Assembly (NCBI GenBank): GCA_024655945.1
Contig: JANLFK010000002.1
Span: 124,001 to 188,000, forward strand
Length of the DNA stretch: 64,000 bases
Source of the DNA: a candidate division KSB1 bacterium
GTDB lineage: Bacteria; Zhuqueibacterota; Zhuqueibacteria; JANLFK01; Oleimicrobiaceae
Direction: 5' to 3'
The position numbers and the translations under genes are program-made. The notes under the pieces are model-generated. The model made no database searches. It was given only the letters and a program-made list of their open reading frames with translations, and had not been told where the DNA came from. Of this stretch, positions 3,496 to 29,437 are shown in pieces (within the stretch, counting starts at the first letter, position 1; every line of letters begins with the position of its first letter).

Positions 3496-3515
3496 AATTG
3501 CCTCCTGCGTCATTT

Positions 3516-5954: not shown

Positions 5955-5962
5955 GGGAAGCC

Positions 5963-7993
5963 TCAATTGATGATGGCAAACTTGCCCAGCTTGACTTCAC
6001 CCTGCTTGTTGGTCACCTGGAAGAAGTACATACCGCTCTTCACATACTGGCCATAGTCGCTGATCTGGTTCCAGAACGCCACTCCGGACGAGGGGTCACG
6101 ATGATGGATGGTCTTGACCAGATCCCCGCGCACGGTATAGATACGAATGGTGCACTCCTCGGAGAGATTCACAAACTGGATCAGCTTCACGTCCCCGGCA
6201 AGCTCAAATCCGGAGCTGCGATAGAAAGGATTGGGGACCACCGTCACGTGGTCGAGCTGCTTTGCTGTGGGGCGAAGCGTGGTGTAGAAAGGTTGCCGCA
6301 TGCGATTGGCAAATATGGAGGACTCCAGTGGTGGCACCTGATAGCTGGGGTCCATGGCCCACGCAGGCCAGCCGTGGTCATAGCTGGTGACTGAGTAGTA
6401 GAACGCATAACCCAGCGCCACCTCAGAGTCCAGGTAGATGTAGCGCTGCGAGTCCGCGTGGAAGAACCGTGGGTCACCCACCGGGATGTCCACTAACATT
6501 TTCCATGGGCCAAACGGATATTGGCCTGAGCGATAGATACGATACCCGGCAACGTCGGGCACCCCCTGATGCGGATCAGGGACCGACTCCACCTCGCTGC
6601 CGAATGAAATCACGTTGCCCACGCGGCCGCCCTCCCGCACAGGATAAACCACAAAGCGCGGGCCAGGCGGGGGCATGGGCAGCGTGTAGTGATGCTCATA
6701 GGCGAAGCTCACGCGCTGTTCCAGGTAGGAGACTGCCGAATCCCCGGCGGCGCGGAGGTCGGTTATGGTCAGCAGGGGGTTATCCGCCCTCTCGTAGGGC
6801 AGACCCCCCACAAACTCTGCCACCACCACTTTGATAGAATCGCCCCTCGCCAAGTGATAGGGGCCCAAGGAAAAGTTGGCATAAAGCCTGTTCTGCCCCA
6901 TGCGGGGGTCGGTAGGATCAGCAAATGCCTCAGACAGAAGAAGCGGGTTGGCCATGGCGGCGTACTTGCTGGTGAGGCCGGCCACGCCGAGAAAAGGGCC
7001 GGAGTGGTCGTTGGTGGGTGGAGCAGCAGACCAAGCAAAGCCGTTGATGCGATTAGCCTGCCCGCCGGTATCCGGAGATATGTGCAGGAACTTGATGCCG
7101 ATGAGACCCGGCGCAAGAAAACGTGAGCGCACTGCCGGACCGCCTCGAACCGGATCATAGACCCTTTCCTGAAAGACATCAAAGGATTCGTCATTGCCCG
7201 GAGTGAGGGCAAAGTCCCCAGCCCAGGCCGTCAGCAACCGACGCTCCGGGTCCCAATCACCGTGGGTGTTCCGCGCACCCTCTGGGAAGTTGGGAAACAC
7301 CAAGGACCACCCCCGGTGATTGGGAGAAAGGGCATAGGTGAAAAGCAAATAGACCCCGTTGAGGGGCTTGCGCCGCTGCATGTTCTTGACCACATACTCG
7401 ATAATCACATAGTCTTCATCGGCACGAGAACCTGACCACTGCCGCACCGTGCGCCTGACCAGCACAGGCATGTTTTGGTTATCCCATGGTTGATACCAGG
7501 CACCGTTCATTTCCCACTGGGTGTCGATGACCTCCTCCGCCTCGTAGGGGTCCCGCTGCAGCCAGTAGTTGCCGTCCTGCCATCGCCTGCGGTGAATGGG
7601 CTTGCCCTTGCTGTCTTTGCTTATGAGGTAGCGGAACTGGTCGCCTTCAATACCAACATCGGTGCCGTGAGTGGCAAAGTTGTCCCATCCCCACACAGTG
7701 CCGGTATCCGTCTTCGCCGTCAGAAAGAAGCCGCCGGACAGAAGGTACGTATGATGCCCGCCGATGTTCTGCTTGATCTCCTCGCTGGCAAACCCTGGCC
7801 AGTCCAGGCCATAGGTCTTCCTGCTCCAGTCGGCCATCGGCTCGCACTCTTGCGACAAGTAGAAGGAATGCCAGAGTCGGCCGCGAGTGAGCTCGATCGT
7901 GTAGGGATTGCCCTGGGCGTTGGCCGGAGAGTTCCCTGCCGCCAGACCTGCAGCAAGAAGAATCATTGCCCGGAGTGCGCGCTTTCGCACCAT
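5963..7993 (-). CDS. Large secreted protein with T9SS-like tail
   Basis: 676 aa counted from ATG 7993, whose product begins with a good signal peptide (RAMILLAAGLAAGNSPANAQ); a GTG at 8014 is the upper limit. The body has no catalytic motif that I recognise. The C-terminal ~90 residues start at VVPNPFY and end in SGMYFFQVTNKQGEVKLGKF, a FlgD/T9SS-type beta sandwich. The stop is 8 bp before the PorV-like start, and the gene directly follows the TonB receptor. In a Sus-like system this slot would hold SusD; this protein does not resemble SusD, but could be the surface lid or binding subunit. Confidence 0.8.
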   Translation of the reverse strand: MVRKRALRAMILLAAGLAAGNSPANAQGNPYTIELTRGRLWHSFYLSQECEPMADWSRKTYGLDWPGFASEEIKQNIGGHHTYLLSGGFFLTAKTDTGTVWGWDNFATHGTDVGIEGDQFRYLISKDSKGKPIHRRRWQDGNYWLQRDPYEAEEVIDTQWEMNGAWYQPWDNQNMPVLVRRTVRQWSGSRADEDYVIIEYVVKNMQRRKPLNGVYLLFTYALSPNHRGWSLVFPNFPEGARNTHGDWDPERRLLTAWAGDFALTPGNDESFDVFQERVYDPVRGGPAVRSRFLAPGLIGIKFLHISPDTGGQANRINGFAWSAAPPTNDHSGPFLGVAGLTSKYAAMANPLLLSEAFADPTDPRMGQNRLYANFSLGPYHLARGDSIKVVVAEFVGGLPYERADNPLLTITDLRAAGDSAVSYLEQRVSFAYEHHYTLPMPPPGPRFVVYPVREGGRVGNVISFGSEVESVPDPHQGVPDVAGYRIYRSGQYPFGPWKMLVDIPVGDPRFFHADSQRYIYLDSEVALGYAFYYSVTSYDHGWPAWAMDPSYQVPPLESSIFANRMRQPFYTTLRPTAKQLDHVTVVPNPFYRSSGFELAGDVKLIQFVNLSEECTIRIYTVRGDLVKTIHHRDPSSGVAFWNQISDYGQYVKSGMYFFQVTNKQGEVKLGKFAIIN

Positions 7994-8032
7994 TTTCACC
8001 GTGCCTCTCAACACCGCTCTACGCCCCCCGGC

Positions 8033-11174: not shown

Positions 11175-13109
11175 CTAAGAGCTAGGTTCAGGGAGCAACG
11201 AAACCGGGTTAGCAGCGAAGGGGTCCAGGGCCTTGTCCAAAAGGTACGCGAATTCCGCCCGAGGCATCGGCTCACTCAATCGCTGCCCGGAAGCAGCCAG
11301 AGCTCCGCGCAGCCAGCCGCGTTCCCCGGCCAGCGCAAGACCCCGGGAAACCTCTTCGGAGAGGCCCTCGGGCCCTTCGGCAGCGTCGCCACTGAGCGGG
11401 ATAGGGTGGCCCAATGCGCGACAAATGAGCCCCAGCACCTGGGCGCGCGTAAGGACGCGATGTGTGGACAACGGTGCGAGCAGGCTGCCAAGGTCGTCGT
11501 GCAGCCGGGCATTGAGCAACGCCAGGTGCGCATCGGGCAGTTCCACCGGCGCTTCGGGCAGGAAGAGCATTTGGTTAGCCCAGCCGGACGGCTTTGGCAT
11601 GGCGCGCATCAGGCCACAGACCCCCACACGTTGCACCGCGTCGAAAAAGGGGTTCTCGCGCGGGCAGTCGGTGAAGGGCATGAGGTAGCAGCCATGGCGA
11701 AGGAGTGTCTCCTGCAGGGCCCGGACAGCAAGCTGACGAGGCTGACACTGCCGCAGCACACACAGCGCGGCCGCGGCACCGGCAGCTTGCCCCACCAGCA
11801 TCACCACCGGCTGCAACCTCGTACACCCGTTCACAAGATGCGTCACCGAGATTGTTTTTTCCGCCACCAGCAGCCCATCTATTTCCTCGGGCACCAAACA
11901 GCCGTACGGCACGGTGAAGGCCGGGATCTCGGGAAATGTTTCTTCGACCCTGACCGGGCAACGGGCATGGTGGTGGTCCAAAGGATAGTCCCCGACCGCA
12001 ATTCCTGTCTTGTAGAGGGGCCTGCGCCCCTGGTTGTAGGGATTGACCAGATCCAAGGTGGTGAGGCACACCACACCACGCACTCGTCGCGCCTCGCGGT
12101 TGTAAGGGATCAACGGCAGACGGTCGCGGGTGGGGAACTCATCGTCAGCCAAGCCCAGATGTCGCCATCCGAGATGCTTCTGCACGAAGCAAATCCAGCC
12201 CAACGTGGTCCGCTTCGCCTGCTGTAGGAGGACGCGGCGCATCGGGCGAGGCAACTCCACCACGTTGAGATAACAATCGTTGCCGTGCACTGGCCAATTG
12301 ACCATAAATTTGCGGCCCGGCAGTCGTCCATAGGAGAGCATGCGCCCACAGTCGGGCGCGTCCGTTCCTTGCCCACCGAGCTCACGGCAGGTGCCCGTGT
12401 AGAGCTGCTCATCGTAACCCCTGGGCTTGCCCACGGTACGATCATGGCCCTGGCCGTAGTCCTTCAGGATGGCCACGTAGGTGAGGTCTTGGATAAAGGG
12501 GTCCGGGGCTTCGGGCGCGCCGGGCTCTCCTGTTTGTGAGCGAGCATCCCGCCCGAGGTCATAAGCGCAACCTGCACCCGCCAGCACATCGCCGTATTCG
12601 GTGGCATCGATGGTGGCCGTGGCCCTGATGGTGAGAAGCTCACCGCGGCGATTGGCAAACTGCACGCCCTGCACCCGCCCGCGCCTGGTGAGGACTCGCA
12701 CCGGCCAATAGCCATGGGTTACATTGATGCTGGGCTCCGCCGCAACCATTCGCCTGAAGATGGCCTCTCCCACATGGGGCTCGAACAGTGTGTTGCTCAC
12801 CCAGCCAGTGGCCACCTCTTGGGGACCGCCGTAGTGGTCATAGAGATGTTGGCGGAATTCGCCCCAGAGGCCAGAAGGCAGCAGGTGATTTCCGTCTACG
12901 GCGCTCACGCCGGCAGCCGTCAACATCCCGCCCAGCCAGGGGGTCTCTTCCACAAGGGCGACTTTGACCCCGAGGCGCGCCGCCTGGATCGCCGCGCACA
13001 CTCCTCCGGTACTGGCCCCGACCACCAACACGTCCACCTCTAAGCGCGCCTTCCCTTCAGGAGGACCTGAGCTTGTTGTTGGCTTCGCAATCCCTCTGGA
13101 ACCGCACAC
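11175..13109 (-). CDS. FAD-dependent oxidoreductase (FAD_oxidored family)
   Basis: 644 aa from GTG 13109 (GAGG six bases ahead). The frame is open to TTG 13145, but that codon overlaps the promoter -10; GTG 13037 is also possible. The dinucleotide-binding motif is VDVLVVGASTGGVCAAIQAA near the N-terminus, followed by LVEETPWLGGMLTAAGV and the conserved ATIDATEYGD, typical of the FAD_oxidored family of large flavoproteins often found in polysaccharide-use clusters. A second FAD-site segment, LQPVVMLVGQAAGAAAAL, lies at about 60% of the chain. The last ~120 residues (ending MPRAEFAYLLDKAL) resemble a degenerate S-layer-homology repeat. No signal peptide is visible. Substrate unknown. Confidence 0.88.
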   Translation of the reverse strand: MCGSRGIAKPTTSSGPPEGKARLEVDVLVVGASTGGVCAAIQAARLGVKVALVEETPWLGGMLTAAGVSAVDGNHLLPSGLWGEFRQHLYDHYGGPQEVATGWVSNTLFEPHVGEAIFRRMVAAEPSINVTHGYWPVRVLTRRGRVQGVQFANRRGELLTIRATATIDATEYGDVLAGAGCAYDLGRDARSQTGEPGAPEAPDPFIQDLTYVAILKDYGQGHDRTVGKPRGYDEQLYTGTCRELGGQGTDAPDCGRMLSYGRLPGRKFMVNWPVHGNDCYLNVVELPRPMRRVLLQQAKRTTLGWICFVQKHLGWRHLGLADDEFPTRDRLPLIPYNREARRVRGVVCLTTLDLVNPYNQGRRPLYKTGIAVGDYPLDHHHARCPVRVEETFPEIPAFTVPYGCLVPEEIDGLLVAEKTISVTHLVNGCTRLQPVVMLVGQAAGAAAALCVLRQCQPRQLAVRALQETLLRHGCYLMPFTDCPRENPFFDAVQRVGVCGLMRAMPKPSGWANQMLFLPEAPVELPDAHLALLNARLHDDLGSLLAPLSTHRVLTRAQVLGLICRALGHPIPLSGDAAEGPEGLSEEVSRGLALAGERGWLRGALAASGQRLSEPMPRAEFAYLLDKALDPFAANPVSLLPEPSS

Positions 13110-13136
13110 GGGATACCTCGCTTCTCTTGCGTGCTC

Positions 13137-13165
13137 AATATACAAAAACGGCCCGTGCAGCGCAA
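13137..13165 (-). promoter_or_regulatory. Sigma-70-type promoter for the FAD oxidoreductase
   Basis: Minus strand TTGCGC (13160-13165), 17 bp, TATATT (13137-13142). It faces away from the plus-strand promoter at 13207-13235, so both genes are controlled from one 130-bp region. Confidence 0.6.
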
Positions 13166-13206: not shown

Positions 13207-13235
13207 TTGCAACAGGGGAAAAAAGATGCTATATT
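13207..13235 (+). promoter_or_regulatory. Sigma-70-type promoter of the permease-hydantoinase operon
   Basis: Plus strand TTGCAA (13207-13212), 17 bp, TATATT (13230-13235), about 43 bp before the permease ATG at 13278. Confidence 0.65.
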
Positions 13236-13277
13236 TGAGCACCACATACGAAAGCACTCGCACACGGTCCTGCAGCG

Positions 13278-14753
13278 ATGGAAACCCTCAGAGTTCTCGT
13301 TGTCCTCTTCCTCTTTGTAGTCTTCGCCGGAGCGATGTTCCTCCGCAAGCTCCCCGCGCTCATCTGCCTGCCCTGCATGGCTTTTCTCATCCCGCTGGTC
13401 GCGGGACTCAACGTCGCAGACGTGGTACAGTTTGTGGTGGGTGAGGGGGCGCTTCGCCTCCACAATGCCTATACGGTCGCCCTCTTCGGGAGCATGCTCA
13501 GCGTGTTGCTGCAAAAAACTGGGGTCGCCGATAGCCTCATCAAGAAAGGGGCCGAACTGGCTGGCGACAGCCCGTTGGTCGTGGCCCTGACGATGCTGGG
13601 GCTCATCACCCTGCTATTCACCGCCTTGGGGGGCCTGGGCGCAATCATCATGGTGGCGACGGTCGTCGTACCCATCATGTCATCTGTGGGCCTTGGACCC
13701 CTCACCATCACCGGCGTCTTCCTCATGGGCATCAGCATGGGCGGCTTGCTGAACGCAGGCAATTGGGCAGTCTATCGCGACGTGCTCCAACTGCCAGTGA
13801 CCGAGATCCGTTCCTTCGCCCTGATTATGTTCTGTCTCACCTGTGTGGTCGGTGTGGCCTACACTCTTGTGCAGGTGCACCGCGACGGACATCAATTCGG
13901 CCGGCGCAGCATTCTTACGCTGGTCCTCGTCCTCCTTTGCCTCATGATCGGGCTTGTGGTGGGCTGGCATTGGCTGCCACCCGACCAGCGTTCATCCATG
14001 CTTGCGGCCTTCCGCACCGCTGGCAAGGTGCTTGAGGGCTTCATCGCCGGCCTGATGGCCATCTCCTTCGCTTGGGGGCTATGGCGAACGCGCCGGGCCA
14101 GACGGACAGCGAACCCTGGACTGTTTTGGGGAGCCTACCTCTCGCCCTTGGTCCCCCTTTTCCTCATACTTTTCTTCAACACTAACTTTGTTGCCGCCTT
14201 CGTATGCGGCTTGGTGTACGCGTTCGTGTGCGCCTACCGGCCAGGAGGGGTGAATGTGCTGGTGCGGAGCGTGCTTGATGGCGGAGCACTGGTGATGCCG
14301 GCTGTGGCCTTGATGCTTGGCATCGGCATGCTGTTGAACGGCATCATGGGCCCTGGCGACACATGGCACGCTCGCCAGCTCGGCGAATGGCCAGTGCTGG
14401 CGTTGCTGCGGCCTTACATGACGCGCCTCATCCCGTCTTCTCCCCTCTCCTACGTGCTGCTGTTCGGTCTGGCCGCGCCCCTGGCCTTGTACCGCGGGCC
14501 ACTAAACGTGTGGGGGATGGGCTACGGACTGGCTGCAGCATTCATGGCCAGCGGCATGATGCCTGGCGCCATGATGGGCGTTCTGATGGCCGTGGGGCAA
14601 GTGCAAGGCATCAGTGACCCCACAAACACGCACAACGTCTGGCTGGCAAATCAGATGGGACAGGACGTGCAGAAGGTGCTATGGAACACCATTCCCTACT
14701 CGTGGGCCGTAGCCTGGATGGGACTGGTGGCAGCGAGTGTGCGCTTCATGTAG
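13278..14753 (+). CDS. Multi-pass inner-membrane permease, ion-transporter-superfamily-like
   Basis: 491 aa with roughly 12 hydrophobic segments in two halves. Features include re-entrant-like Gly-rich stretches ([21 protein letters not shown] and [22 protein letters not shown]), the pattern of CitMHS/GntP/DcuC-type carboxylate carriers. No signal for an ABC or MFS type. First gene of a plus-strand operon; the next gene, an ATP-dependent hydantoinase-like enzyme, starts 16 bp on, so the permease probably imports that enzyme's substrate. The ribosome site before ATG 13278 is weak. The exact family is uncertain. Confidence 0.7.
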
Positions 14754-14769
14754 CACGGACAGACAACGC

Positions 14770-16938
14770 ATGGACCGCAAGCGCAGAATCAAGATCGGCA
14801 TCGACGTCGGCGGCACCTTCACCCACGCGGTGGCGGTGGACACCGCCAGCTTTGAGCTGGTGGGAAAAGCCTGCGTGCCCACTACGCACCAGGCAGCGGA
14901 GGGCGTCGCCAAGGGGGTGGTGGAATCGCTGGAACGGCTGATGACAACTGCCGCCATCGACCCCAACGAGGTGGTGCTCATTGCGCACTCCACCACGCAA
15001 GCCACCAATGCCCTCCTCGAGGGGGATGTGGCGCACGTGGGCATTGTGGCCATGGGCAAGGGGCTTGAGGGACGCATCACCAGTCGGCAGACGCGAGTGG
15101 ATCGCATCCTCTTGGCACCGGGAAAGTACCTGCCGGTCAGCCACACTTACTTGGACGTTTCCAAGCCCCCGGAGCGGCGGACGGTGCAGCAGGCGGTGGC
15201 CGACCTTGTGGCTCAAGGCGCCCAAGTGATTGTGGCCAGCGAGGCCTTTGGCGTGGATGACCCGCGCAATGAGAAGCTGGTGGCAGAAATAGCACAGGAG
15301 ATGGGCTATCTGGCCACCGCGGCCACCCACATCTCGCGCCTCTATGGGCTCCGCATCCGCACCCGCACCGCAGTCATCAATGCCAGCATGATGCCGGTAA
15401 TGCTGGAGACGGCCCGCATGACCGAGGAGGCCTTGCGACGCACCGGCATCAAGGCCCCATTGATGATCATGCGCTCCGATGGCGGCATCATGGATGTCAA
15501 CGAGATGCGCCGGCGGCCCATCCTCACCATGCTCTCGGGGCCAGCGGCAGGGGTAGCTGCTGCCTTGATGTACCTCCGCATCTCCGACGGCATCTTCGTA
15601 GAAGTCGGCGGGACCTCCACGGACGTCTCGGTTATTAAGAACGGGAAGCCGCAGGTGAGGAGCGCCCAGGTCGGCGGCCACCGGCTCTACGTGCGCACCT
15701 TGGATGTGCGAACCGTGGGCATTGGCGGTGGCTCTATGCCTCGGCTGCGCGGCAATGAGATCGTCGACGTCGGACCGCGAAGCGCGCACATTGCTGGCCT
15801 GCAGTACATGGCTTTTGCCGTGGAGGACGACTGGGACGACATCGAGTTGCAGCGTATTCGCCCACGGCCAGGAGACCCGGACGACTATTTGGCGGTGCGC
15901 AAAAAGGGGCATCACCAGCCCTGCAGTACGCTGACCACCACGGGAGCGGCATATTTCCTGGGAACAGTTCCCGAGGGGCATCGTATGAGCATCAATGCGC
16001 GCGCCCTGCAGTCGTTCTTCACCGTGTTCGCCCGCCACATGCAGGCCGACGCTCGTCAGCTGGCGAGGCGCATGCTCACCCTGGCCACCGACAAGTTGCT
16101 TCCCGTGGTGCGGGGGCTCATGCGCGAGTACAAGCTGAGCCCGGAGATCGTCCAGCTTGTGGGCGGTGGCGGCGGCGCCCCGGCGCTGGTTCCGCCGCTT
16201 GCCCAAGGCCTGGGACTTTCTTATGCGCTTGCGCAGCACTGCGAAGTCGTCTCGGCCATCGGCGTGGCGCTGGGTATCATCCGGGATGTGGTGGAGCGAA
16301 CTGTGCTCAATCCCACGGAAGCCGACCTCATCGCCATTCGGCAAGAGGCAGTGCGCTCGGTGGAGGCCATGGGCGCGGTGCCCGAGAGCATCGAGGTGAC
16401 CGTTGAAGTTGACATGCGGAGTAAGCGGGTGACCGCGGTCGCCACAGGACAGAGCGAGTTCCGCACGCGCGCCATGGGCATCGCTCCATTGACCGAGGCA
16501 GAGTTGCGCGCGATCGCCGCACGTTCAATGCGCCTGCCCGCTGCGCAAGTGGAGCTTCGCGGCCGCACCGCTTTTCTGGCCGTGTTTGCCGGCCGCCGCT
16601 CGGCGCGCCGCCGCTTTGGCCTCCTGCATAGGGAAACGCACCCGGTCCGGGTGCTGAACCACGAGGGGGTGATACGCCTGCGACTTCAGGATTGCGCCTC
16701 AGTGGTGGCAACCACCGTGCAGGAGGCCAAGCCCGTGGTGGCCAGCCTGATAGAGAGCCTGACCACCTACGGCGACGCCGGGGGTCTTGTTCCGGACCTG
16801 TACGTGCTTCTTTCCGCCAAGATTATCGACATGACGGGCTTGACGCAGGAATCGCACATCAACGCCGTGCTGGAGATTGAGCTTCAGGGGTTGCCGCCGC
16901 AGGAGCCACTGGTCATTCTTGCCACGCGAAAGAGGTAG
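14770..16938 (+). CDS. Hydantoinase/oxoprolinase family protein (HyuA-like)
   Basis: 722 aa. An upstream GTG (14737) overlaps the permease; ATG 14770 begins just before the motif. The first domain starts with [18 protein letters not shown], the phosphate-binding strand-turn-strand of the hydantoinase/oxoprolinase N-terminal domain. The central domain has [13 protein letters not shown] and [13 protein letters not shown], the second nucleotide-binding element, and the motif [15 protein letters not shown] lies near residue 470. Known relatives use ATP to open cyclic amides (hydantoins, 5-oxoproline) or to carboxylate acetone-type substrates. HyuB, the usual partner, is not adjacent, which is unusual. 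Substrate unknown. Confidence 0.88.
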
Positions 16939-16943
16939 CCGGC

Positions 16944-18410
16944 ATGAACACGTCGATTCAGTCGCCTTCTCCGAGCACTTTCTCGTCCTCGCCCCACGGT
17001 GCCTCGAGTGGCCGCGTCTTGTCGTTGGACGCTCTGCGCGGCCTGGCCATCCTGGCAATGGTTCTCTCTGGCATCATCCCTTACGGGGTGCTGCCGGCAT
17101 GGATGTACCACGCGCAACTACCCCCTCCTACCCACAGCTTCGATCCGACGCGCGCCGGCCTCACGTGGGTGGACCTTGTGTTCCCTCTCTTTCTGTTCTC
17201 CATGGGCGCAGCGATACCTCTTGCCTTGACGCGTCGTCTTGCGGGTGGCACGCCTATCCGGACGGTACTGCTCAGCACAGCGGAACGCGGCTTCTTGCTG
17301 GCATTCTTCGCGATCTTCTTGCGTCACGTTCGCCCGCACGTTCTCAACTCGCAGCCAACCGCTGCCACCTGGGGTCTTGCTCTGGCAGGCTTTGCCGTGA
17401 TGTTCCCTTTGTTCGCACGCCTCCCCGCGCACTGGCCGCGGTGGCAAAGGGGCGCCCTTCGCGGCGTGGGCTGGTTAGCAGCGGCGGCTCTCTTGGCCGT
17501 GCTCCGTTACCCCGATGGAAGCGGCTTCTCCCTGCACAGGAGTGACATCATCATCTTGGTCTTGGCCAACGTAGCAGTCTCCGGCTCGCTGGTCTGGTTG
17601 CTCACGCGTAATCGTCTGCTCCTTCGTCTTGGGGTGCTCGGCATCCTGTTGGGGCTTCGTTTGGCATCTGCAGAGCCAGGCTGGGTAAAGTGGCTGTGGC
17701 AGGCCACGCCGGCGCCCTGGCTCTACAAGCTTTATTACCACCAGTACCTCTTTGTGGTCCTGCCAGGTACGATTGCCGGCGATCTGTTCCTCCATTGGAC
17801 AAAGAGCCTGCAGCAGGGACATGCGGGAGCGCAGGCGTGGAACACCCTGCGCAGCGGCGCTCTCGTGGGGACGATCCTCGGCGTGCTCATTGTGTCGCTG
17901 GTGGGGCTGCAGGCAAGGTGGCTCTGGCAGACGACGCTCGTGGGCCTTGCCCTTTGCGTGGGAGTTCTGTTGCTGAGCAGGAACGCCACTTCCGAGCACG
18001 AGGTGCTCCTGAAGCGACTCCTCCTGTGGGGAAGCTACTGGTTCCTGGCCGGCCTCGTGTTTGAGCCATACGAAGGTGGCATTAAGAAAGACCATTCGAC
18101 GCTCAGCTACTACTTTCTCACCACCGGGCTGTCCTTTTTCTTGCTGGCGGCCTTTGTGGTAGTCATTGACATCTGGCGCGAGCGGCGTTTCGTTCAGCTA
18201 TTGGTCGCCAACGGCCAGAATCCGATGATCGCCTACGTGGGCATGGCCAATGCCATGTGGCCTGTCTTCGCTCTCACGCGCGCCGACAAACTGCTCGCGG
18301 CTCTCACTCCTCGGCCGTGGTTGGGCTTTCTGCGGGGCGTAGGCTACACGCTGTTGCTGGCGCTGATGGTGAGCTGGCTTACCCGGCGACGAATCTACTG
18401 GCGCACGTGA
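16944..18410 (+). CDS. NagX/HGSNAT-like membrane acyltransferase (DUF5009)
   Basis: 488 aa, 5 bp after the hydantoinase gene, with GAGGT before the ATG. The cytoplasmic N-terminus is followed by RVLSLDALRGLAILAMVLSG, the signature first helix of the DUF5009/heparan-alpha-glucosaminide N-acetyltransferase family, and then about 11 membrane helices ending LMVSWLTRRRIYWRT. The human relative acetylates terminal glucosamine across a membrane; the bacterial NagX genes sit in N-acetylglucosamine clusters. The gene is next to a GHL10 hydrolase and opposite GH94 and NanE-K genes, which supports a role in amino-sugar handling. Confidence 0.85.
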   Translation: MNTSIQSPSPSTFSSSPHGASSGRVLSLDALRGLAILAMVLSGIIPYGVLPAWMYHAQLPPPTHSFDPTRAGLTWVDLVFPLFLFSMGAAIPLALTRRLAGGTPIRTVLLSTAERGFLLAFFAIFLRHVRPHVLNSQPTAATWGLALAGFAVMFPLFARLPAHWPRWQRGALRGVGWLAAAALLAVLRYPDGSGFSLHRSDIIILVLANVAVSGSLVWLLTRNRLLLRLGVLGILLGLRLASAEPGWVKWLWQATPAPWLYKLYYHQYLFVVLPGTIAGDLFLHWTKSLQQGHAGAQAWNTLRSGALVGTILGVLIVSLVGLQARWLWQTTLVGLALCVGVLLLSRNATSEHEVLLKRLLLWGSYWFLAGLVFEPYEGGIKKDHSTLSYYFLTTGLSFFLLAAFVVVIDIWRERRFVQLLVANGQNPMIAYVGMANAMWPVFALTRADKLLAALTPRPWLGFLRGVGYTLLLALMVSWLTRRRIYWRT

Positions 18411-18417
18411 GGTACAC

Positions 18418-20310
18418 ATGCGCAAAGTTCTCTCCCACCTGCTCATGCTCCTTCTCCCCTTGTGCGTCAACGCGCAGCCAGGGCGCGAGCTCCGCGCGGT
18501 CAAACTGACCAACGTGGACAGCTATGTCTTGTTTGACGATGGCGAAATTGCGCGCGCCATGGACTTTTTGGCTGCGCACAATTTCAACGTGGTCTTGCCA
18601 GTGGTCTGGAACGGGCATGGGGTGGACGGCGTGTACACGCTCTATCCCAGCGCGGTGATGGAGAGGCTATTCGGCAAGGCCATGTACCCACTCTTTTCTC
18701 CTGGTCGGGACCCCTTGGAACGTGTCGTCATTGAGGCCCACCGCAACGGCATGGAGGTCTGGCCGTGGTTCGAAATGGGCTTTTCCTGCTCCTACTCCCA
18801 GGGCGGCGGGTACATCCTGCGCACTTTTCCGGAATGGGCCCTGCGCGACAACAACGGGGCGCTGGTGGTGAAGAACGGCTTCGACTGGATGTCGGGCATC
18901 AACCCCGAAGTCCAGGGGCTGTTCTTGGCCCTGGTGAGCGAGATAGTGGACCGCTACGATGTGGATGGTATCGAGTTTTCAGACCGAATCCCCGCCATGC
19001 CTGTTGAGGGCGGCTACGACGTGGCAACTGCCCAGCTTTATGCCCAGGAACACGGAGGCAGCGCACCGCCCGCCAACTACCGCGACCCTGAGTGGATGCG
19101 TTGGCGCGCGCAAAAATTGACTGCGTTCTACAGTGCCGTGCGCGATTCGGTGAAGCGCCGCAGCACGCAGCTCATGGTCTCCTCAAGCCCAAGCGTCTAC
19201 CCGTGGGCCTACCAGGAGTACCTGCAGGATTCGCCCACCTGGTTCACCAGTGGCATCGTCGATAACCTCATCCCCCAACTGTACCGTTACACATTTGCCG
19301 AATATCTCTACGAGCTGAACAGCTCCCTGAGCTACGTTCCTTCGGCGATGAGGGACCGTTTCTTCGCCGGGATGCTCATCTACCTGCGCGGCGAGAACTA
19401 CCTGATCGCCCCTGGGTATCTTCTGGACGCGATCCAAGCCAATCGTGCGCGTGGCGTCATGGGAGAGGCGCTCTTCTTCTACGAAGGGCTACGGCAAAGG
19501 AACGGTGTGCTGGCGGACACTTTGCGGGCAACGGTCTATGGCGAATCGGCACAGCCGCCGCATCGCGGCGAAAGCGTGTGGCGTCCGCCGGCGCTGGTCG
19601 TACATGAGGACGACGCCAGTGCCAAGCGAATCGGGACCTGGGAGCAGACGACGGCATCCGGCTACCGCGGCAAGGCGCTCCTGCACCGGGACACCTCCTA
19701 CGCAGCTGTGGAATACGAATTCGAGGTGCCGGCGAGCGCCTGGTACCACGTGTTGGCTTTCATCGTCACCGGCACACTAACCACCGATCGGGCGCGCTTT
19801 TCGGTGTACTCGGCACACGACACCTCGGTCCATGTGCTTTCGCAGCGCGGTTACCTGAACGCAGGGTGGCGCCGTCTGCGTTCGGCTTACTTGACCGCGG
19901 GCAGGCACACCGTGGTCAAGCTCGATAACCACAGTGTCTTGCCCGGCGACCTCATCGTTGCCGACGCGACCATGATTATGGTCGACCGCAAGCGGTCCCC
20001 GGAGGTTGTGTTTACAGGCACTCCCTCTTCCCATGATCGGCTCATGCCACGTGCAGTCCGCCTTCGCGTCTACCCCAATCCCGCCCACGATGCTGCGACA
20101 GTCTTCCTTGAGGTGCCTCACGCAGGAGAGACCGCGGTCACCGTGTACGACCTGCTTGGAAGGCAAGTCCTCGAAGTCCTTCCCGGGCACCTGCCTCCGG
20201 GCCAACATTCGCTTCGCCTGCGCCTCGACCATCTGCCAAGCGGCCTCTACTTCTGTCGCGTGTGCACAGCCGAGTCCAGCGCCGTGACGAAGCTCCTCTT
20301 GACCAGATAG
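18418..20310 (+). CDS. GHL10-family glycoside hydrolase with golvesin-like domain and T9SS tail
   Basis: 630 aa. Signal peptide residues 1-20 (KVLSHLLMLLLPLCVNA). The GHL10 barrel spans about 25-380: LRAVKLTNVDSYV, VWPWFEMGF, and DVDGIEFSDRI, the active-site strand (one residue longer than in the paralogue at 1-1451). A golvesin-like beta domain follows at about 395-525 (TASGYRGKALLHRDTSYAAV to GDLIVADATMIMV). The last ~80 residues begin RLRVYPNPAHD and end VTKLLLTR, a T9SS sorting domain. The product is therefore a surface or secreted glycosidase. It shares DPEWMRWRAQKLT with the paralogue's DPHWMRWRADKLT. Last gene of the operon. Confidence 0.9.
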   Translation: MRKVLSHLLMLLLPLCVNAQPGRELRAVKLTNVDSYVLFDDGEIARAMDFLAAHNFNVVLPVVWNGHGVDGVYTLYPSAVMERLFGKAMYPLFSPGRDPLERVVIEAHRNGMEVWPWFEMGFSCSYSQGGGYILRTFPEWALRDNNGALVVKNGFDWMSGINPEVQGLFLALVSEIVDRYDVDGIEFSDRIPAMPVEGGYDVATAQLYAQEHGGSAPPANYRDPEWMRWRAQKLTAFYSAVRDSVKRRSTQLMVSSSPSVYPWAYQEYLQDSPTWFTSGIVDNLIPQLYRYTFAEYLYELNSSLSYVPSAMRDRFFAGMLIYLRGENYLIAPGYLLDAIQANRARGVMGEALFFYEGLRQRNGVLADTLRATVYGESAQPPHRGESVWRPPALVVHEDDASAKRIGTWEQTTASGYRGKALLHRDTSYAAVEYEFEVPASAWYHVLAFIVTGTLTTDRARFSVYSAHDTSVHVLSQRGYLNAGWRRLRSAYLTAGRHTVVKLDNHSVLPGDLIVADATMIMVDRKRSPEVVFTGTPSSHDRLMPRAVRLRVYPNPAHDAATVFLEVPHAGETAVTVYDLLGRQVLEVLPGHLPPGQHSLRLRLDHLPSGLYFCRVCTAESSAVTKLLLTR

Positions 20311-20335
20311 CCTGCAGCGACCGTCTCATTTGCCC

Positions 20336-20388
20336 GCGCACCTGGGCGTAGGTGCGCGCCACGCGCCCTGGGCGAGAAGGCGCCCTTT
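20336..20388 (+). terminator. Hairpins between convergent operons
   Basis: Stem GCGCACCT / AGGTGCGC (20336-20343 with 20350-20357, loop of 6), followed by GGGCG-AGAAGG-CGCCC (20370-20385) and TTTCCCTT. It lies between the GHL10 stop at 20310 and the NanE-K stop at 20503, so it may act in both directions. The T-run is weak. Confidence 0.4.
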
Positions 20389-20502
20389 CCCTTGCCAGCG
20401 GAGTCCGTCTTCGTCCCGCGCGCCGTCCAGGGTGCGCAGCAGCCACCTGCGGGTAAGCTGCAGGCGTCAGCAGCGGTGTCCGCTGCCAGCCTTGGCCGCA
20501 CT

Positions 20503-22113
20503 TCAGGCAAAACGCAGCAAGGCCAGCTGGGCTCCTCCTACGGCGCCTGCCCGATTGCCGAGGTGCGCACAGCGAAGCGGCGGGCGGGGCCCAACACGCA
20601 CACGCAGCCCTTCCAGCAGGTGCTCGCCCAGCGCCGAGAGTTCGCCGCCGAGCACGACGATGTCCGGATCGACAATGTTCCTGAGACTGGCCAGAGCGCA
20701 GGCCAGATAGTCGAGTTGCCTGTTGAACAGGGAGGAAAGGTGCGGCTCCCCGACCCGTAGCAGGGCGGCCAATTCCTCGGCAGTGGGTTCCCTGTCGGTC
20801 GCGAGCGGTACCAGGCCCTGCCGTGCCGTCGAGAGCGCCTGTTGCGCAAGTAGCCGCCTGGACACATAGGCCTCAAGGCAACCACGCGCACCGCACCGGC
20901 ACTTTCGACCGCCTTGGCGCACGCACAGGTGGCCAATCTCGCCGGCGTTGATGCCGCGCACCAGCTGGCCATCAATAAGTATCCCACCCCCCACGCCCGT
21001 GCCTATGGTCACCACGGCAAAGCGCGACGGTCGTGGCAGCGGAAGCAGCTGATATTCCGCATAGGCAGCGGCATTGACGTCGTTTTCCACATGCACCGGC
21101 AGCCGCAGAGCGCGGCTTAGCTCCTTGCGCAACGGGTAGGCGAGGTAGTCGTGCGCCAGCGGCACACCACCAACCACCATTCCCTTCTCCACGTCCACCC
21201 GGCCCGTGGCGGCAACACCCACCGCACAGGGAGTCGCTCCTGCGGCCTGGATCACCTGCTGCACGGCCTGGGTCAGCTTGCCGACCACTGCTGCCATCCC
21301 CAATCTCCAAGGGGTGGAAAAGGCCTGCTCGTGGCGGAAGTCCCCCGCGAGGTCCCCAATACCCACCAGTGTCCGCGTGCCACCCAGGTCAATGCCCACG
21401 GCGGTAGCCCGCAAACGCGCCTGGTGCCGGGATAGCGCCTGGGCGATCCGTCGCGTGAGAGCTGCGGGCCGGGTGATGGCCGTGCCCACCACTACGGCAG
21501 ATGCCCCACAGTTGAGCGCCTCCACCGCTTGCTCCGGCGTCCAGATTCTCCCCTCTGCGATGACGGGCACATCGGCCCCAAACCGGGCACGGAGCGCCGC
21601 CACGAGCTCCAAGTCGGGCAGGTCCGGTGGCGGCGCAGCGCCAGTGTACCCGGATAAGGTCGTGCCTACCAGGTCACAACCCAGTGCTGCCGCAGCAAGG
21701 CCTTCCTCGAGTGAGGACACATCGGCCATCACCAGCACCCCCCGTCTCTTGAGCTCCTCCACCAGAGACGACAGCGCTTGACCGCCAGGCCTGGAACGCG
21801 AGGTGGCGTCCAAGGCGACCACATCCGCACCCGCTGCGACTACCTCGAGCGCATCCTCCAGCGTCGGGGTGATGTAGACAGGCGACTCCGGGTAGTGTCT
21901 TTTGCGCAGGCCTATCACTGGCAGAGCCACCGCCGCCTTGATCGCCCGGATATTGGCCGCACCCTCAGCGCGAATGGCGACCGCGCCTCCCGCCGCAGCA
22001 GCCCTGGCCATAGCAGCCATCATGGCCGTGTCCTCCAGGGGATCTCCTGGGTCCGCCTGGCACGAGACGATGAGTCCGCCCCGGATTGCAGCAAGGAATC
22101 CGTCGCGCGTCAT
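20503..22113 (-). CDS. nanEK: Fused N-acetylmannosamine-6-phosphate 2-epimerase / ROK-family kinase
   Basis: 536 aa. Residues 1-230 are a NanE TIM barrel: GGLIVSCQA, LPVIGLRKRHY with the likely catalytic Lys at 71, and VIAEGRIWTPEQAVEAL. Residues 238-536 are a ROK sugar kinase: VGIDLGGTRTLVGIG, HVENDVNAAAYAEY, TIGTGVGGGILIDGQ, and the zinc motif CRCGARGCLEAY. The fusion would phosphorylate ManNAc and convert ManNAc-6-P to GlcNAc-6-P. Such NanE-NanK fusions are known in other bacteria. It begins 7 bp after the GH94 gene, implying one transcript. The kinase could instead prefer GlcNAc, fed by GH94. Confidence 0.92.
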   Translation of the reverse strand: MTRDGFLAAIRGGLIVSCQADPGDPLEDTAMMAAMARAAAAGGAVAIRAEGAANIRAIKAAVALPVIGLRKRHYPESPVYITPTLEDALEVVAAGADVVALDATSRSRPGGQALSSLVEELKRRGVLVMADVSSLEEGLAAAALGCDLVGTTLSGYTGAAPPPDLPDLELVAALRARFGADVPVIAEGRIWTPEQAVEALNCGASAVVVGTAITRPAALTRRIAQALSRHQARLRATAVGIDLGGTRTLVGIGDLAGDFRHEQAFSTPWRLGMAAVVGKLTQAVQQVIQAAGATPCAVGVAATGRVDVEKGMVVGGVPLAHDYLAYPLRKELSRALRLPVHVENDVNAAAYAEYQLLPLPRPSRFAVVTIGTGVGGGILIDGQLVRGINAGEIGHLCVRQGGRKCRCGARGCLEAYVSRRLLAQQALSTARQGLVPLATDREPTAEELAALLRVGEPHLSSLFNRQLDYLACALASLRNIVDPDIVVLGGELSALGEHLLEGLRVRVGPRPPLRCAHLGNRAGAVGGAQLALLRFA

Positions 22114-22120
22114 CCTGCAG

Positions 22121-24568
22121 TCATCCCTTCCGCTGCGGCTCCCGCGCCTTGTGGCTCAGGGTCACGCGCACCGGCACACGCTCCTTGCCGGCTATCGCCC
22201 GTGCCACGCACTCATCGTCCAGGTCAATAAGGTTCCCAGCCAAGCGCTCCCCTGCCACCACCACCTCGACCACCCCTCTGCTCACGTGCTCGGGGTTGGT
22301 CACCTCCATGTCGAACAAATGCCCGCGGAACCTCCGTTGCACCCGAAACAAAGTCCATTTCGCCGGAACACATGGGTCGATGAGCAGGCCCCGGTACGTC
22401 GGCCTGACGCCGAGGATGTAGTCGAGCACATCGCGGAACATCCAGGCCGAGGAGCCCGTGAGCCAGGAATGGCTTGCCTGGCCGTAGGTGGGATGGTCGG
22501 GGCTGGTGACATACTCGGCGTAGACGTAAGGCTCCACCTCATAGCGGTCAATGTCCACCACCGGGTTCATGGGCAAAGCCCGCTTGTAAAGGTCGAAGGC
22601 GCGCTCCGCCCTCCCCAGGAGACATTCCGCGAGTATCGCCCAGCTTACCGCGTGGTTGAAGACGCTGCCGTTTTCCTTCTTTCCGGCCACACAGCGCGTC
22701 GCAAGGCCAATCCGCGGATCGATCGTGCGGTACGGCGGGTGCAGGATCTTTGGCCCCTTGGGCGTGTCCAGGTGCAGGCGCACGGCCTCCATGCATTGCC
22801 ACGCCCGCTCCTCTGGCGCGACGCCGCTAATCACCGCCCAGGACTGCGCGTTCAGGAAAATGCGACCTTCCCGAGTGCTGGCGGAGCCGATTACCTCCCC
22901 CCAGTCGTTGGTGCCACGAATGTACCACTCCCCGTCCCAGCAGTGCTGGTTGATGGCGTTGCGAAGCTGTTCATAAGCCTTCCCATAGCGGGAAGCCTGT
23001 TCTTTCGAGCCGAGGTAGTGCAGTAGCTCCATAAGTTCCTTGAGGACGAAGGCCAGGAACATGCTGACCCACACGCTGTCGCCTTTGCCGCCCCGGCCCA
23101 GGTAGTCGAGAGTATCGTTCCAGTCACCAGGGCCAAACTTGGCCAGCCCGCGTGGCGAAAGATTTGCTAAGAGGTAGTCCACCGCCAAGAGGGCGTGCTG
23201 CAACACTGAGCCGGACCCTTGGTCGGCAAACGGCACATTCGCATCCAAGAAGGGCCAGTCAGCGGTTTCCTTCAGATACTGCGTCACGGCGAACGGGAGC
23301 CAAAGAGGTGTGTCGGCGTGGCCTGTTCGCTCACCCGTGCCGCTGCCCGGAAAAAGCAGGTGAAAGGCACTGCCATCGGCGAATTGCGCGCGACACATCT
23401 GCTCGAGCCGCTGGCGCACCCAATCCGGCCTGGCGATCATCGGCCCCAACGTGTCTTGGCAGGAGTCCCTAAAGCCACGCCCAAAGAGCAGGCCTCCGTG
23501 ATAGTAGGAGGCATCGCGGGAAAAACGAAAGGTCACCGAGGTCTGGTACTGATTCCAGACGTTTACCATGGTGTTGAGATCGTCGTCCGGAGTGGCCACC
23601 TGGACGGCGCTCAAGTAGTCGCGCCACTCGTCGAGCAGGCGCTGGTACTCGCTCTGCACGAGGCCGAGGTCCCGGTACTTCCGCACCAGCGTCGCGCCCG
23701 CCTCCGGGTACTCCTTCTTGGGCACCACACCCAGCAGAACCACGAACTCCTGCTCCACGCCGGCTTGGAGTTCCAACCCGGCGTGGAGCGCCGCCACTGC
23801 ATCCCCGGAGGTGATTTCGGAGTTTGTGCAGCGGCCAAGTTCCACTGCCTCCGGGTTTGCCTCGGAGCGCCAACGTCCGATGAACAGGTCCTTGCTCCCA
23901 TCCCAGCCTGTCACGGGCAACGAGGAGGCAAAGAAAACCACCTTGTCCCACTCTTCGTTGGCTTGCTGAACTGTCGGGCCCCGGTAGCGCACCCAATAGC
24001 GCTTGGTGGCAAAGAGAATCTGCTCACTGCGGTCGAAACGCACCTCATTAAAGTGCTGGTCATTGGGCTGGTTGATGAGATCAACCAGCGCGTGCCCCAA
24101 GCAGAGCTCCACATAGGCAAACAGGTCCAATTCCCTTGGCGCCTGCTGCCTGTTGCGGATCCTGACCCGCCAGACCTCCAAGTCGTCGTCGATGGGCACG
24201 AAGTAGAGAATCTCCGCCTCAATGCCTCGAAATGCGGACACAATGCGCGTGTAGTACACACCGTGGTGGCAGCGGAACTCCTCAAGGCCGGTTGCCGTCG
24301 GTTGCCAGGTGGGCGACCAGTAGATGCCCGAGCTGCGGTCACGCAAATAGAGATATCGCCCGGGCCGGTCCATGGGCAGGCCATTGTAGCGCCAACGGGT
24401 GATGCGGTCATCTCTGGGCGAAGGGCAAAAGCTAAAGCCACCCCCCGTCTGCGACACAAGGCCGGTGTAGCGGCCATTGGAGATATAGTTCACCCATGGC
24501 TTAGGAGTATCCGGCCGGGTGATGATGAATTCCTTTCGATCCTCCGAGAACGTCCCGTACTTTTGCAC
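22121..24568 (-). CDS. GH94 phosphorylase, chitobiose-phosphorylase-like
   Basis: 815 aa from GTG 24568, preceded by GGAGAGG; the frame is open to a TTG at 24589. The N-terminus (QKYGTFSEDRKEFIITRPDT, PWVNYISN) is typical of N,N'-diacetylchitobiose and related GH94 phosphorylases. An N-terminal beta-sandwich of about 300 residues is followed by the (alpha/alpha)6 barrel, with GRGFRDSCQDTLG, the catalytic-acid motif GPGDWNDTLD near residue 482, and the C-terminal QASHSWLTGSSAWM. The family uses phosphate to split beta-linked disaccharides to a sugar-1-phosphate. The partner NanE-K suggests GlcNAc-containing substrates. No signal peptide, so cytoplasmic. Confidence 0.88.
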   Translation of the reverse strand: MQKYGTFSEDRKEFIITRPDTPKPWVNYISNGRYTGLVSQTGGGFSFCPSPRDDRITRWRYNGLPMDRPGRYLYLRDRSSGIYWSPTWQPTATGLEEFRCHHGVYYTRIVSAFRGIEAEILYFVPIDDDLEVWRVRIRNRQQAPRELDLFAYVELCLGHALVDLINQPNDQHFNEVRFDRSEQILFATKRYWVRYRGPTVQQANEEWDKVVFFASSLPVTGWDGSKDLFIGRWRSEANPEAVELGRCTNSEITSGDAVAALHAGLELQAGVEQEFVVLLGVVPKKEYPEAGATLVRKYRDLGLVQSEYQRLLDEWRDYLSAVQVATPDDDLNTMVNVWNQYQTSVTFRFSRDASYYHGGLLFGRGFRDSCQDTLGPMIARPDWVRQRLEQMCRAQFADGSAFHLLFPGSGTGERTGHADTPLWLPFAVTQYLKETADWPFLDANVPFADQGSGSVLQHALLAVDYLLANLSPRGLAKFGPGDWNDTLDYLGRGGKGDSVWVSMFLAFVLKELMELLHYLGSKEQASRYGKAYEQLRNAINQHCWDGEWYIRGTNDWGEVIGSASTREGRIFLNAQSWAVISGVAPEERAWQCMEAVRLHLDTPKGPKILHPPYRTIDPRIGLATRCVAGKKENGSVFNHAVSWAILAECLLGRAERAFDLYKRALPMNPVVDIDRYEVEPYVYAEYVTSPDHPTYGQASHSWLTGSSAWMFRDVLDYILGVRPTYRGLLIDPCVPAKWTLFRVQRRFRGHLFDMEVTNPEHVSRGVVEVVVAGERLAGNLIDLDDECVARAIAGKERVPVRVTLSHKAREPQRKG

Positions 24569-25000
24569 GACACCTCTCCAGCTTGGCAATCAGCAATGTG
24601 CAATCCACAGCAAGTTCGTTCGCACTCCAGGGGCACGCTTCGTTGTGCCAAAAGTCTGAACCCGCGGCTCAGACGAATACCCCTGGCTGGCCTTCCGTGC
24701 GGCCCGTTCGTGAGTGCCGACCGTGGGCTTCCGGCCTTGCAGCCACCTGGCAAACGATCGACTCCGGCCGTGGTACGTTTCGTGACACACAGGGGGCGGA
24801 CACAACCGTCAGCACATCTTTGGGTCTGACAAAGCTGCCTGCGTCAGAGGGCCGAAGCAACTTCCAGTATGTCAGATTTAGATGGCAGTCAGGCTAATTC
24901 CCTACGGCACCAACTGCGCAATAAGATAGGCAAACGGAGAGAAAAAGCCAAAGGGAAAATTCCTTCGCAAACAGGAGAGACGTGCCAGTAAAGGGAGGCG
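24569..25000 (-). other. Long untranslated leader/intergenic region of the GH94 operon
   Basis: No credible gene. On the minus strand it would be a leader of about 350 bases from the promoter at 24923-24951. It holds inverted repeats: TCTGA-CC / GG-TCAGA around 24655-24675 and GGCAC-N8-GTGCC around 24630-24650, plus several TCTGAC-type repeats between 24800 and 24900. These could be operator or attenuator elements. Confidence 0.35.
24923..24951 (-). promoter_or_regulatory. Sigma-70-type promoter of GH94-nanEK
   Basis: Minus strand TTGGCT (24946-24951), 17 bp, TATCTT (24923-24928), about 350 bases upstream of the GTG at 24568. Confidence 0.5.
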
Positions 25001-26663: not shown

Positions 26664-27021
26664 GAGCTCCACCTCCACCCACGTGCATCCGTTGCCCTCG
26701 CGGATGGAGCAGCGCCTGCTCGCCCCGCGTCGCACTAGGCAACGGCCTGCGCACCACGTGCACCGTTAGCGCTGGAGCAACAAAAAACGCGTTCCCTTGC
26801 GGTCGTTCTCGAAGGTCGCCCGCTCCGCCTCCACACAGCCACACTCTTCTCCAACGCCGGAGGACCGCGCTAACTGCACATGCACACCACACTATGTCGT
26901 TTCGCTCACCCCTGCTCCCGGTCGACACCACTATCACGCGACCGGCAATCGCTCCTCCTCATACCCCAGGTATGGAACCGCCTCCTCAAGGTAGGTCCAT
27001 TAGTTGAACCAACCGGTGACA
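26664..27021 (-). other. Long leader of the histidine kinase gene
   Basis: About 350 bases between the promoter at 27022-27049 and ATG 26663. I see no well-supported gene; a minus frame across 26527-26937 overlaps the kinase N-terminus and has Arg/Gly-rich shadow-like composition. Confidence 0.3.
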
Positions 27022-27049
27022 AATATAGCGTGAAAACCTGAAAAGTCAA
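27022..27049 (-). promoter_or_regulatory. Sigma-70-type promoter for the histidine kinase
   Basis: Minus strand TTGACT (27044-27049), 16 bp, TATATT (27022-27027) in an AT-rich patch within a GC-rich region, 115 bp after the HDOD stop. Confidence 0.65.
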
Positions 27050-27165
27050 GCGGAAAGTTCAGCAAGGCGGGACTCGAGGGACTTTCCTGACTGTTTGGCC
27101 TGCCAACTGTGCAACTTTGCGACACCGCTGGTCAGGCGAAGCTGGCGGAGATTTTGGGAGGAGCC

Positions 27166-28098: not shown

Positions 28099-28113
28099 TC
28101 CACACCCTCGTGC

Positions 28114-29423: not shown

Positions 29424-29437
29424 GTTCTATCCTCTCA

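What the first reader, a model, noticed from the sequence alone, without database searches (positions are those of the whole stretch)
13207..24951. Candidate amino-sugar or peptidoglycan-glycan salvage cluster
Two convergent operons join a secreted GHL10 hydrolase (E. coli DigH of this family cuts denuded peptidoglycan glycans), a NagX/HGSNAT-like membrane acyltransferase, a permease, a cytoplasmic GH94 chitobiose-type phosphorylase and a NanE-ROK fusion. Together these could cut glycans outside, bring in disaccharides, phosphorolyse them and feed GlcNAc-6-P to glycolysis. The hydantoinase step has no known place in such a route.
Basis: partly seen in the sequence, partly recalled or inferred. 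Interest (0 to 1): 0.6.

Follow-up and report, generated by a model that had tools for sequence, protein, structure and literature searches.

The report
Bacterial amino-sugar scavenging locus, misnamed hydantoinase
The genes form a real and widely conserved bacterial set for cutting, importing and burning an amino-sugar glycan, and the gene that looks like a hydantoinase is probably not one: it has no partner subunit anywhere in the genome and may be the missing sugar kinase of the pathway.

Summary
In detail: six long genes lie in two convergent operons at 13278-20310 (+) and 20503-24589 (-), as described. The locus is larger than stated. A divergent FAD_oxidored gene, a TonB receptor, T9SS-exported surface proteins and a second GHL10 sit to the left.

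The set is not a local accident. Permease-HyuA-NanE-FAD_oxidored-phosphohexomutase-GH94 recurs, often as one operon, in Ignavibacteria, Bacteroidetes (including Hymenobacter), Neomarinimicrobia, Calditrichota, KSB1 and Kryptonia. NagX-like and GHL10 genes join in part of these.

The amino-sugar reading is supported. GH94 forms its own clade with a small residue where glucoside phosphorylases have Tyr. NanE and ROK are canonical, and nagA and nagB lie elsewhere in the genome. The peptidoglycan reading is weak: NanE implies ManNAc, the permease has the fold of anion carriers, and GHL10 lacks Cwp19 active-site residues.

New point: the 'hydantoinase' is a HyuA without HyuB. Hydantoinase_B was absent from 22 of 22 genomes tested, and the GxxPGP motif is missing. 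Two Hymenobacter genomes have no ROK kinase and no other NAGK-type hit, so HyuA is the leading candidate for the missing kinase. Substrate and kinase role remain inference.

The parts
1..1451 (-). second GHL10 protein (GHL10 + Golvesin_C + T9SS tail; 628 aa in full, continues left of the window)
   Evidence: L178:17566-19452; GHL10 E=4.7e-56
1531..3606 (-). T9SS-exported surface protein, same family as in the Neomarinimicrobial locus L105
   Evidence: Por_Secre_tail; cluster c41
5001..5966 (-). PorV-like outer-membrane protein
   Evidence: PF19572 weak match (23.4 bits, cut-off 27)
5963..8014 (-). surface protein next to the TonB receptor, conserved with it in relatives
   Evidence: no Pfam match; conserved order
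8033..10936 (-). TonB-dependent receptor with carboxypeptidase-regulatory N-terminus
   Evidence: PF00593, PF13620, PF07715; SusC/RagA cut-off not met (67 of 368 bits)
11175..13145 (-). FAD_oxidored (PF12831) flavoprotein, divergent from the permease; homologues start without a signal peptide
   Evidence: E=2.4e-98; next to permease-HyuA in several KSB1 families
13278..14753 (+). permease of the ion-transporter (anion, DASS/TRAP-like) fold superfamily
   Evidence: no sequence match; AlphaFold2 pLDDT 82, Foldseek best NaCT, SiaQM, IseQM, VcINDY, YdaH
14737..16938 (+). stand-alone HyuA-family ATPase (candidate amino-sugar kinase); probable start ATG at 14770
   Evidence: PF01968 E=6.6e-62, PF05378; full-length HyuA fold; no HyuB in 22 of 22 genomes
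16944..18410 (+). DUF5009 / HGSNAT-like transmembrane acyltransferase with TM1 DxxR (D29, R32)
   Evidence: PF16401 E=1.7e-75; motif as in PMC12423673
18418..20310 (+). secreted GHL10 glycosidase with Golvesin_C and T9SS sorting tail
   Evidence: PF02638 E=1.9e-51, PF25275, PF18962
20503..21408 (-). ROK sugar-kinase domain of the fusion
   Evidence: PF00480 E=4.5e-50
21430..22113 (-). NanE (ManNAc-6-phosphate 2-epimerase) domain of the fusion
   Evidence: NF002231 288 bits, cut-off 189; PF04131
22121..24589 (-). GH94 phosphorylase of a separate subfamily (catalytic Asp492, signature C633, YYHGGLLFG)
   Evidence: PF17167 E=7.6e-118

Best explanation
This is the KSB1 version of a conserved amino-sugar glycan utilisation locus. 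GHL10 enzymes carried to the surface by T9SS cut an extracellular HexNAc glycan, the TonB receptor takes up the pieces, and the DUF5009 acyltransferase N-acetylates free amino groups outside the cytoplasm. The anion-type permease brings a charged HexNAc oligosaccharide into the cytoplasm. There GH94 phosphorolyses it to HexNAc-1-phosphate and free HexNAc. A phosphohexomutase (in the operon in relatives) turns the first into HexNAc-6-phosphate, and a kinase (ROK here, and/or the HyuB-less HyuA) phosphorylates the second. NanE converts ManNAc-6-phosphate to GlcNAc-6-phosphate, which NagA and NagB feed to glycolysis. Because NanE accompanies this GH94 clade and not the other GH94 genes examined, one residue of the substrate is most likely ManNAc, for example a ManNAc/GlcNAc disaccharide from a bacterial wall or surface polymer. 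Shown: gene content, co-occurrence, folds, motifs, absence of HyuB. Inferred: every catalytic step, the substrate and the kinase role.
For: Operon conservation: of 80 loci chosen only by HyuA, 59 hold the permease, 32 NanE, 27 the mutase, 33 a FAD_oxidored, 19 GH94; with enough flank (31 loci) NanE 15, mutase 15, GH94 12. GH94-clade loci carry NanE in 22 of 28, other GH94 loci in 0 of 7. The GH94 clade is monophyletic, with C633 against Tyr in glucoside enzymes and Val in chitobiose phosphorylase. Mutase between HyuA and GH94. NagB/PIG-L fusion beside nanE in Hymenobacter. nagA and nagB in this genome. Permease fold. No HyuB in 22 genomes. No ROK protein in two Hymenobacter genomes, where the only BcrAD/NAGK-type hits fall inside HyuA itself. 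Orphan nanE genes without sialic-acid clusters were already noted in Ignavibacteriales (PMC10570557).
Against: No enzyme of this locus has been assayed. The permease-HyuA pair also occurs without amino-sugar genes (Obscuribacterales), and G005 has it without GH94 or NagX, so parts can work alone. Roles of FAD_oxidored, the HAD-like protein and GH38 in relatives are unexplained. The mutase was not found in the window operons. An Ignavibacterium album GH94 (IALB_1006) is listed as a chitobiose phosphorylase (PMC8950772); if it belongs to this clade, plain chitobiose may be the substrate. ROK proteins exist in most genomes with the locus, so HyuA need not be the kinase there. Other kinase families were not searched in Hymenobacter.
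Confidence: 0.5

Rival explanations
1. Denuded peptidoglycan or chitobiose salvage: GHL10 cuts the glycan, GH94 splits GlcNAc-GlcNAc or GlcNAc-MurNAc, MurQ and NagA finish.
For: GHL10 enzymes DigH and Cwp19 act on peptidoglycan (PMC12288456, PMC5765458); murQ present; the MurNAc carboxylate would suit an anion permease; IALB_1006 listed as chitobiose phosphorylase; an M19 dipeptidase with T9SS tail near one Ignavibacterium copy.
Against: NanE is unnecessary for it; murQ is in 12 of 13 genomes regardless of the locus; GHL10 of this locus lacks Cwp19 Arg132 and Tyr197; GH94 lies outside the VpChBP clade.
Confidence: 0.25
2. HyuA opens a lactam, such as muramic delta-lactam or a related cyclic amide imported by the permease, and the DUF5009 enzyme re-acetylates the freed amine.
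For: HyuA relatives hydrolyse lactams with ATP (PMC8453981); an acetyltransferase beside it would fit a freed amine; a second acetyltransferase (Antibiotic_NAT) occurs in some loci.
Against: In caprolactamase the hydrolysis step is assigned to the HyuB-type subunit (CapB), and HyuB is absent from all 22 genomes; the GxxPGP adenosine motif is missing; NanE and GH94 are left unexplained.
Confidence: 0.1
3. Two unrelated modules sit side by side: an organic-anion permease with HyuA and FAD_oxidored, and an amino-sugar GHL10/NagX/NanE/GH94 module.
For: Permease-HyuA occurs alone in Obscuribacterales and Sumerlaeota; in KSB1 family f8 HyuA is tens of kb from GH94 on the same contig; G005 has only the first module.
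Against: The genes alternate inside single operons (permease-HyuA-FAD-NanE-FAD-mutase-HAD-GH38-GH94) in several phyla, and Hymenobacter holds HyuA-mutase-GH94 facing permease-NanE.
Confidence: 0.12
4. Sialic-acid catabolism with NanE-NanK.
For: NanE-ROK fusion; the anion permease fold includes the sialic-acid TRAP carrier.
Against: No NanA or sialidase domain among the neighbours scanned with Pfam; a survey found nanE in Ignavibacteriales without sialic-acid clusters (PMC10570557); NanA was not searched genome-wide.
Confidence: 0.03

Closest known systems
GH94 N,N'-diacetylchitobiose phosphorylase (Vibrio proteolyticus ChBP, 1V7V)
   Same: GH94 fold, catalytic Asp in DWND, small residue at the CgCBP Tyr653 position, TR..G.KENG motif
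   Different: separate clade; Cys instead of Val at that position; different loop YYHGGLLFG where ChBP has Arg343; operon contains NanE, HyuA and an anion permease
HyuA of ATP-dependent hydantoinase, oxoprolinase, caprolactamase, acetone carboxylase
   Same: whole fold and the two ATP phosphate motifs
   Different: no HyuB in locus or genome; GxxPGP motif absent; subfamily-specific EGDV and GPRSAH motifs in 55 of 55
DUF5009 / HGSNAT / NagX transmembrane acyltransferases
   Same: DUF5009 domain, DxxR motif of TM1
   Different: far below the NagX equivalog cut-off; no DUF5009 protein has been characterised (PMC12423673)
Bacteroidetes polysaccharide utilisation loci and nan clusters
   Same: TonB receptor, exported hydrolases, permease, cytoplasmic enzymes, ROK-type regulator gene
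   Different: no SusD found and no SusC-level score in the window locus; T9SS/PorV-type partners instead; SusD does occur in the Bacteroidales version L135

Membership tests
ATP-dependent hydantoinase/oxoprolinase | HyuA domains and ASKHA ATPase fold | tested here: met
ATP-dependent hydantoinase/oxoprolinase | HyuB (PF02538) partner subunit | tested here: not met
   0 of 22 genomes, controls positive in 6 of 14
ATP-dependent hydantoinase/oxoprolinase | GxxPGP adenosine motif | tested here: not met
   replaced by GPRSAHIAG in the alignments (motif from PMC8453981)
GH94 phosphorylase | GH94 domains and catalytic Asp | tested here: met
   D492 invariant
chitobiose phosphorylase (EC 2.4.1.280) | grouping with VpChBP | tested here: not met
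   separate clade (catalytic region only, two reference sequences)
chitobiose phosphorylase (EC 2.4.1.280) | small residue instead of Tyr653 at the sugar site | tested here: met
   Cys633; Tyr653 as sugar-binding from PMC5501786
chitobiose phosphorylase (EC 2.4.1.280) | phosphorolysis of GlcNAc2 | not testable with these tools
   needs assay
NanE | family score over cut-off | tested here: met
   288 of 189 bits
NanK equivalog | score over NF047821 cut-off | tested here: not met
   105 of 450 bits; generic ROK domain only
NagX (NF046061) | equivalog cut-off | tested here: not met
   59.6 of 480 bits
GHL10 peptidoglycan hydrolase (Cwp19/DigH type) | active-site residues of Cwp19 (Asp196, Arg132, Tyr197, Tyr297) | tested here: inconclusive
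   Asp196 kept and a Tyr in the PQ(L/V)YR motif at the Tyr297 place; Arg132 and Tyr197 not kept (residues from PMC5765458)
ion-transporter superfamily carrier | fold match to solved members | tested here: met
   18 Foldseek matches at E<=0.001, all of the DASS/TRAP/AbgT type; no sequence match
sialic-acid (nan) cluster | NanA beside NanE and NanK | tested here: not met
   no such domain among the neighbours scanned with Pfam; not searched genome-wide

The most novel reading that the evidence does not exclude
The HyuB-less HyuA subfamily is a new kind of sugar kinase, an ASKHA enzyme recruited from the hydantoinase family to phosphorylate ManNAc or a related amino sugar. Together with a new GH94 subfamily, NanE, a mutase and an anion permease it forms an undescribed catabolic route for ManNAc-containing bacterial surface or wall glycans. 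That would explain the orphan nanE genes of Ignavibacteriales.
Probability: 0.25. Interest if true: 0.75.

Novelty: new variant of a known kind. Interest (0 to 1): 0.52.

Why it matters
If true, a protein family that automatic annotation calls hydantoinase/oxoprolinase is a sugar-metabolism enzyme in several phyla, most of them known only from metagenome-assembled genomes. It gives a function to orphan nanE genes reported without sialic-acid clusters, a likely HexNAc specificity to a separate GH94 clade, and a setting in which a DUF5009 acetyltransferase, of which none has been characterised, could be tested. Hymenobacter psychrotolerans is a named, cultured strain and carries a compact version, so the question can be settled at the bench.

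Tried and rejected
Sequence search for the permease against Pfam, NCBIfam and PDB gave nothing; only the structure model placed it. Literature searches for the gene combination found nothing and none of the titles found describes a HyuB-less HyuA kinase. I tried to decide whether Ignavibacterium album IALB_1006 lies in this operon: genus genomes were searched, but the closed genome G074 is 3,566,706 bases, not the I. album size as I recall it, and its only GH94 lies at 3.53 Mb, so this stays open. murQ was tested as a marker for a peptidoglycan route and rejected as uninformative because nearly all relatives have it. ROK absence was tested as a general argument for HyuA as kinase: it holds only in the two Hymenobacter genomes, not in Ignavibacterium. 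Long minus-strand ORFs overlapping HyuA and others (e.g. 14746-16344) were set aside as high-GC shadow ORFs.

Full report
Observation. The six genes are present and intact in two convergent operons. The first four run on the plus strand from 13278 to 20310 with overlaps or gaps of a few bases; the NanE-ROK fusion and GH94 run on the minus strand from 24589 to 20503. The unit is larger than the finding says. Divergent from the permease lie a FAD_oxidored gene, a TonB receptor, further outer-membrane or surface proteins (one PorV-like, one with a T9SS tail) and a second GHL10. Beyond the window start there is a ROK-type regulator, a very large T9SS protein and another TonB/GHL10 set. This left arm keeps its order in other genomes of the class.

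Where it comes from. The window is therefore from a KSB1-type bacterium, by inference.

Conservation. HyuA relatives above 50% identity are next to the same permease in several families of the class. A scan of named genomes by HyuA alone brought 80 loci from Ignavibacteria, Bacteroidetes, Hymenobacter, Neomarinimicrobia, Calditrichota, KSB1, Kryptonia, Sumerlaeota, Obscuribacterales and Planctomycetes. In Ignavibacteria and Bacteroidales the order permease-HyuA-small FAD_oxidored-NanE-FAD_oxidored-phosphohexomutase-HAD-like-GH38-GH94 forms one operon. Of the 80 loci, 59 hold the permease, 32 NanE, 27 the mutase and 19 GH94; many contigs end inside the operon. SusD-like genes, secreted NAGPA-type phosphodiester glycosidases, extra GHL10 genes and Antibiotic_NAT acetyltransferases join in some lineages. 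NagX and GHL10 are frequent but not universal partners.

GH94. The catalytic Asp492 is invariant (position from CgCBP Asp490, PMC5501786). At the place of CgCBP Tyr653, a sugar-binding residue, the operon clade has Cys, VpChBP has Val, and cellobiose and cyclic-glucan-type enzymes, including the second GH94 of this genome, have Tyr. That speaks for room for an N-acetyl group and against plain glucosides. In the tree the operon enzymes form one clade apart from the VpChBP and CtCBP groups. NanE lies near this clade in 22 of 28 loci and near other GH94 in 0 of 7. Twenty of the 28 contain HyuA, most of them brought in through it, but NanE played no part in that choice. A review lists a GH94 of Ignavibacterium album, IALB_1006, as a chitobiose phosphorylase (PMC8950772). 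Ignavibacterium genomes held here mostly carry only the operon GH94, so IALB_1006 may belong to this clade; I could not confirm it.

NanE and the end of the route. The NanE domain exceeds its curated cut-off, and the ROK domain is generic. nagA, nagB and murQ lie elsewhere in the genome. In Hymenobacter a NagB/PIG-L fusion sits beside nanE, while no TIGR00221 nagA passes the cut-off there. Chitobiose or GlcNAc-MurNAc breakdown does not need NanE, so a ManNAc residue in the substrate is the simplest reading; this is inference. A survey of nanE reported many in Ignavibacteriales without sialic-acid clusters (PMC10570557), which this operon would explain.

Permease. It has no sequence relatives in the libraries used. 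Its model (pLDDT 82) matches NaCT, VcINDY, sialic-acid and isethionate TRAP carriers and YdaH, mostly carriers of organic anions. Sequence identity is 11-16% and TM-scores are about 0.4-0.6, so the fold class is supported but the substrate is not.

HyuA. Full-length fold match to N-methylhydantoinase, acetone and acetophenone carboxylase and caprolactamase. Two defining features fail: PF02538 is absent from 22 of 22 genomes with the gene while control genomes score, and the GxxPGP motif is replaced by GPRSAHIAG. In caprolactamase the first subunit phosphorylates and the second is proposed to hydrolyse (PMC8453981), so a lone HyuA should stop at phosphorylation. Two Hymenobacter genomes with this HyuA, mutase and GH94 have no ROK protein, and their only PF01869 hits lie inside HyuA. 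This makes HyuA the leading candidate for the kinase there. It is not proof: other kinase families were not searched, the genomes are drafts, and ROK proteins exist in most other genomes with the locus.

GHL10 and DUF5009. GHL10 of this cluster keeps the Asp196 equivalent of Cwp19 but has WFE(M/Y)GF and D(S/D)DR-type motifs where Cwp19 has WFNPYR and FDDYF (residues from PMC5765458). The closest structural relative of Cwp19 was PgaB, a PNAG-processing enzyme (same paper). Peptidoglycan is therefore only one option. DUF5009 carries the TM1 DxxR motif; no member has been tested (PMC12423673).

Verdict. Real, conserved and of catabolic amino-sugar type; peptidoglycan not established; hydantoinase name misleading. 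Unexplained: FAD_oxidored, HAD-like and GH38 steps, and permease-HyuA pairs without amino-sugar genes.

Noticed in passing
L178 (G000:C2:106000-125600), left of the window: A ROK-type regulator with HTH, an 1863-aa T9SS protein, a GHL10/Golvesin fusion of 1040 aa and another TonB receptor set continue the locus beyond the window start.
   Followed up: partly
L151, L153, L154, L156, L158, L161, L170, L174, L176, L177: Permease-HyuA pairs in Obscuribacterales/Melainabacteria stand among housekeeping genes (ruvA, nusB, ftsY-like) without amino-sugar genes.
   Followed up: partly
L089:11004-12074, L092:10475-11458: In KSB1 family f8 HyuA is followed by a ROK-family gene, away from the GH94 operon.
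   Followed up: partly
L105:6811-8466, L136:593-2191, L208:12449-14104: NAGPA-type phosphodiester glycosidases (with T9SS tail and Golvesin_C in L105 and L208) sit with the operon in Neomarinimicrobia, Flavobacteriales and Ignavibacterium, hinting at GlcNAc-1-phosphate diesters as in wall-polymer linkage units.
   Followed up: no
L071 (G000:C6:38000-57999): Second GH94 of this genome, glucan type (Tyr at the 633 position), in its own TonB/T9SS cluster.
   Followed up: partly
L146:6040-8018, L148:17362-19379: Kryptonia version has a DAP-dehydrogenase-like protein and a YegS/DAGK-type kinase between FAD_oxidored and GH94.
   Followed up: no
25323-33707: Right of the locus: PAS histidine kinase, HDOD protein, CheR and a flagellin-like protein, so a chemotaxis/flagellar region seems to begin there.
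   Followed up: no
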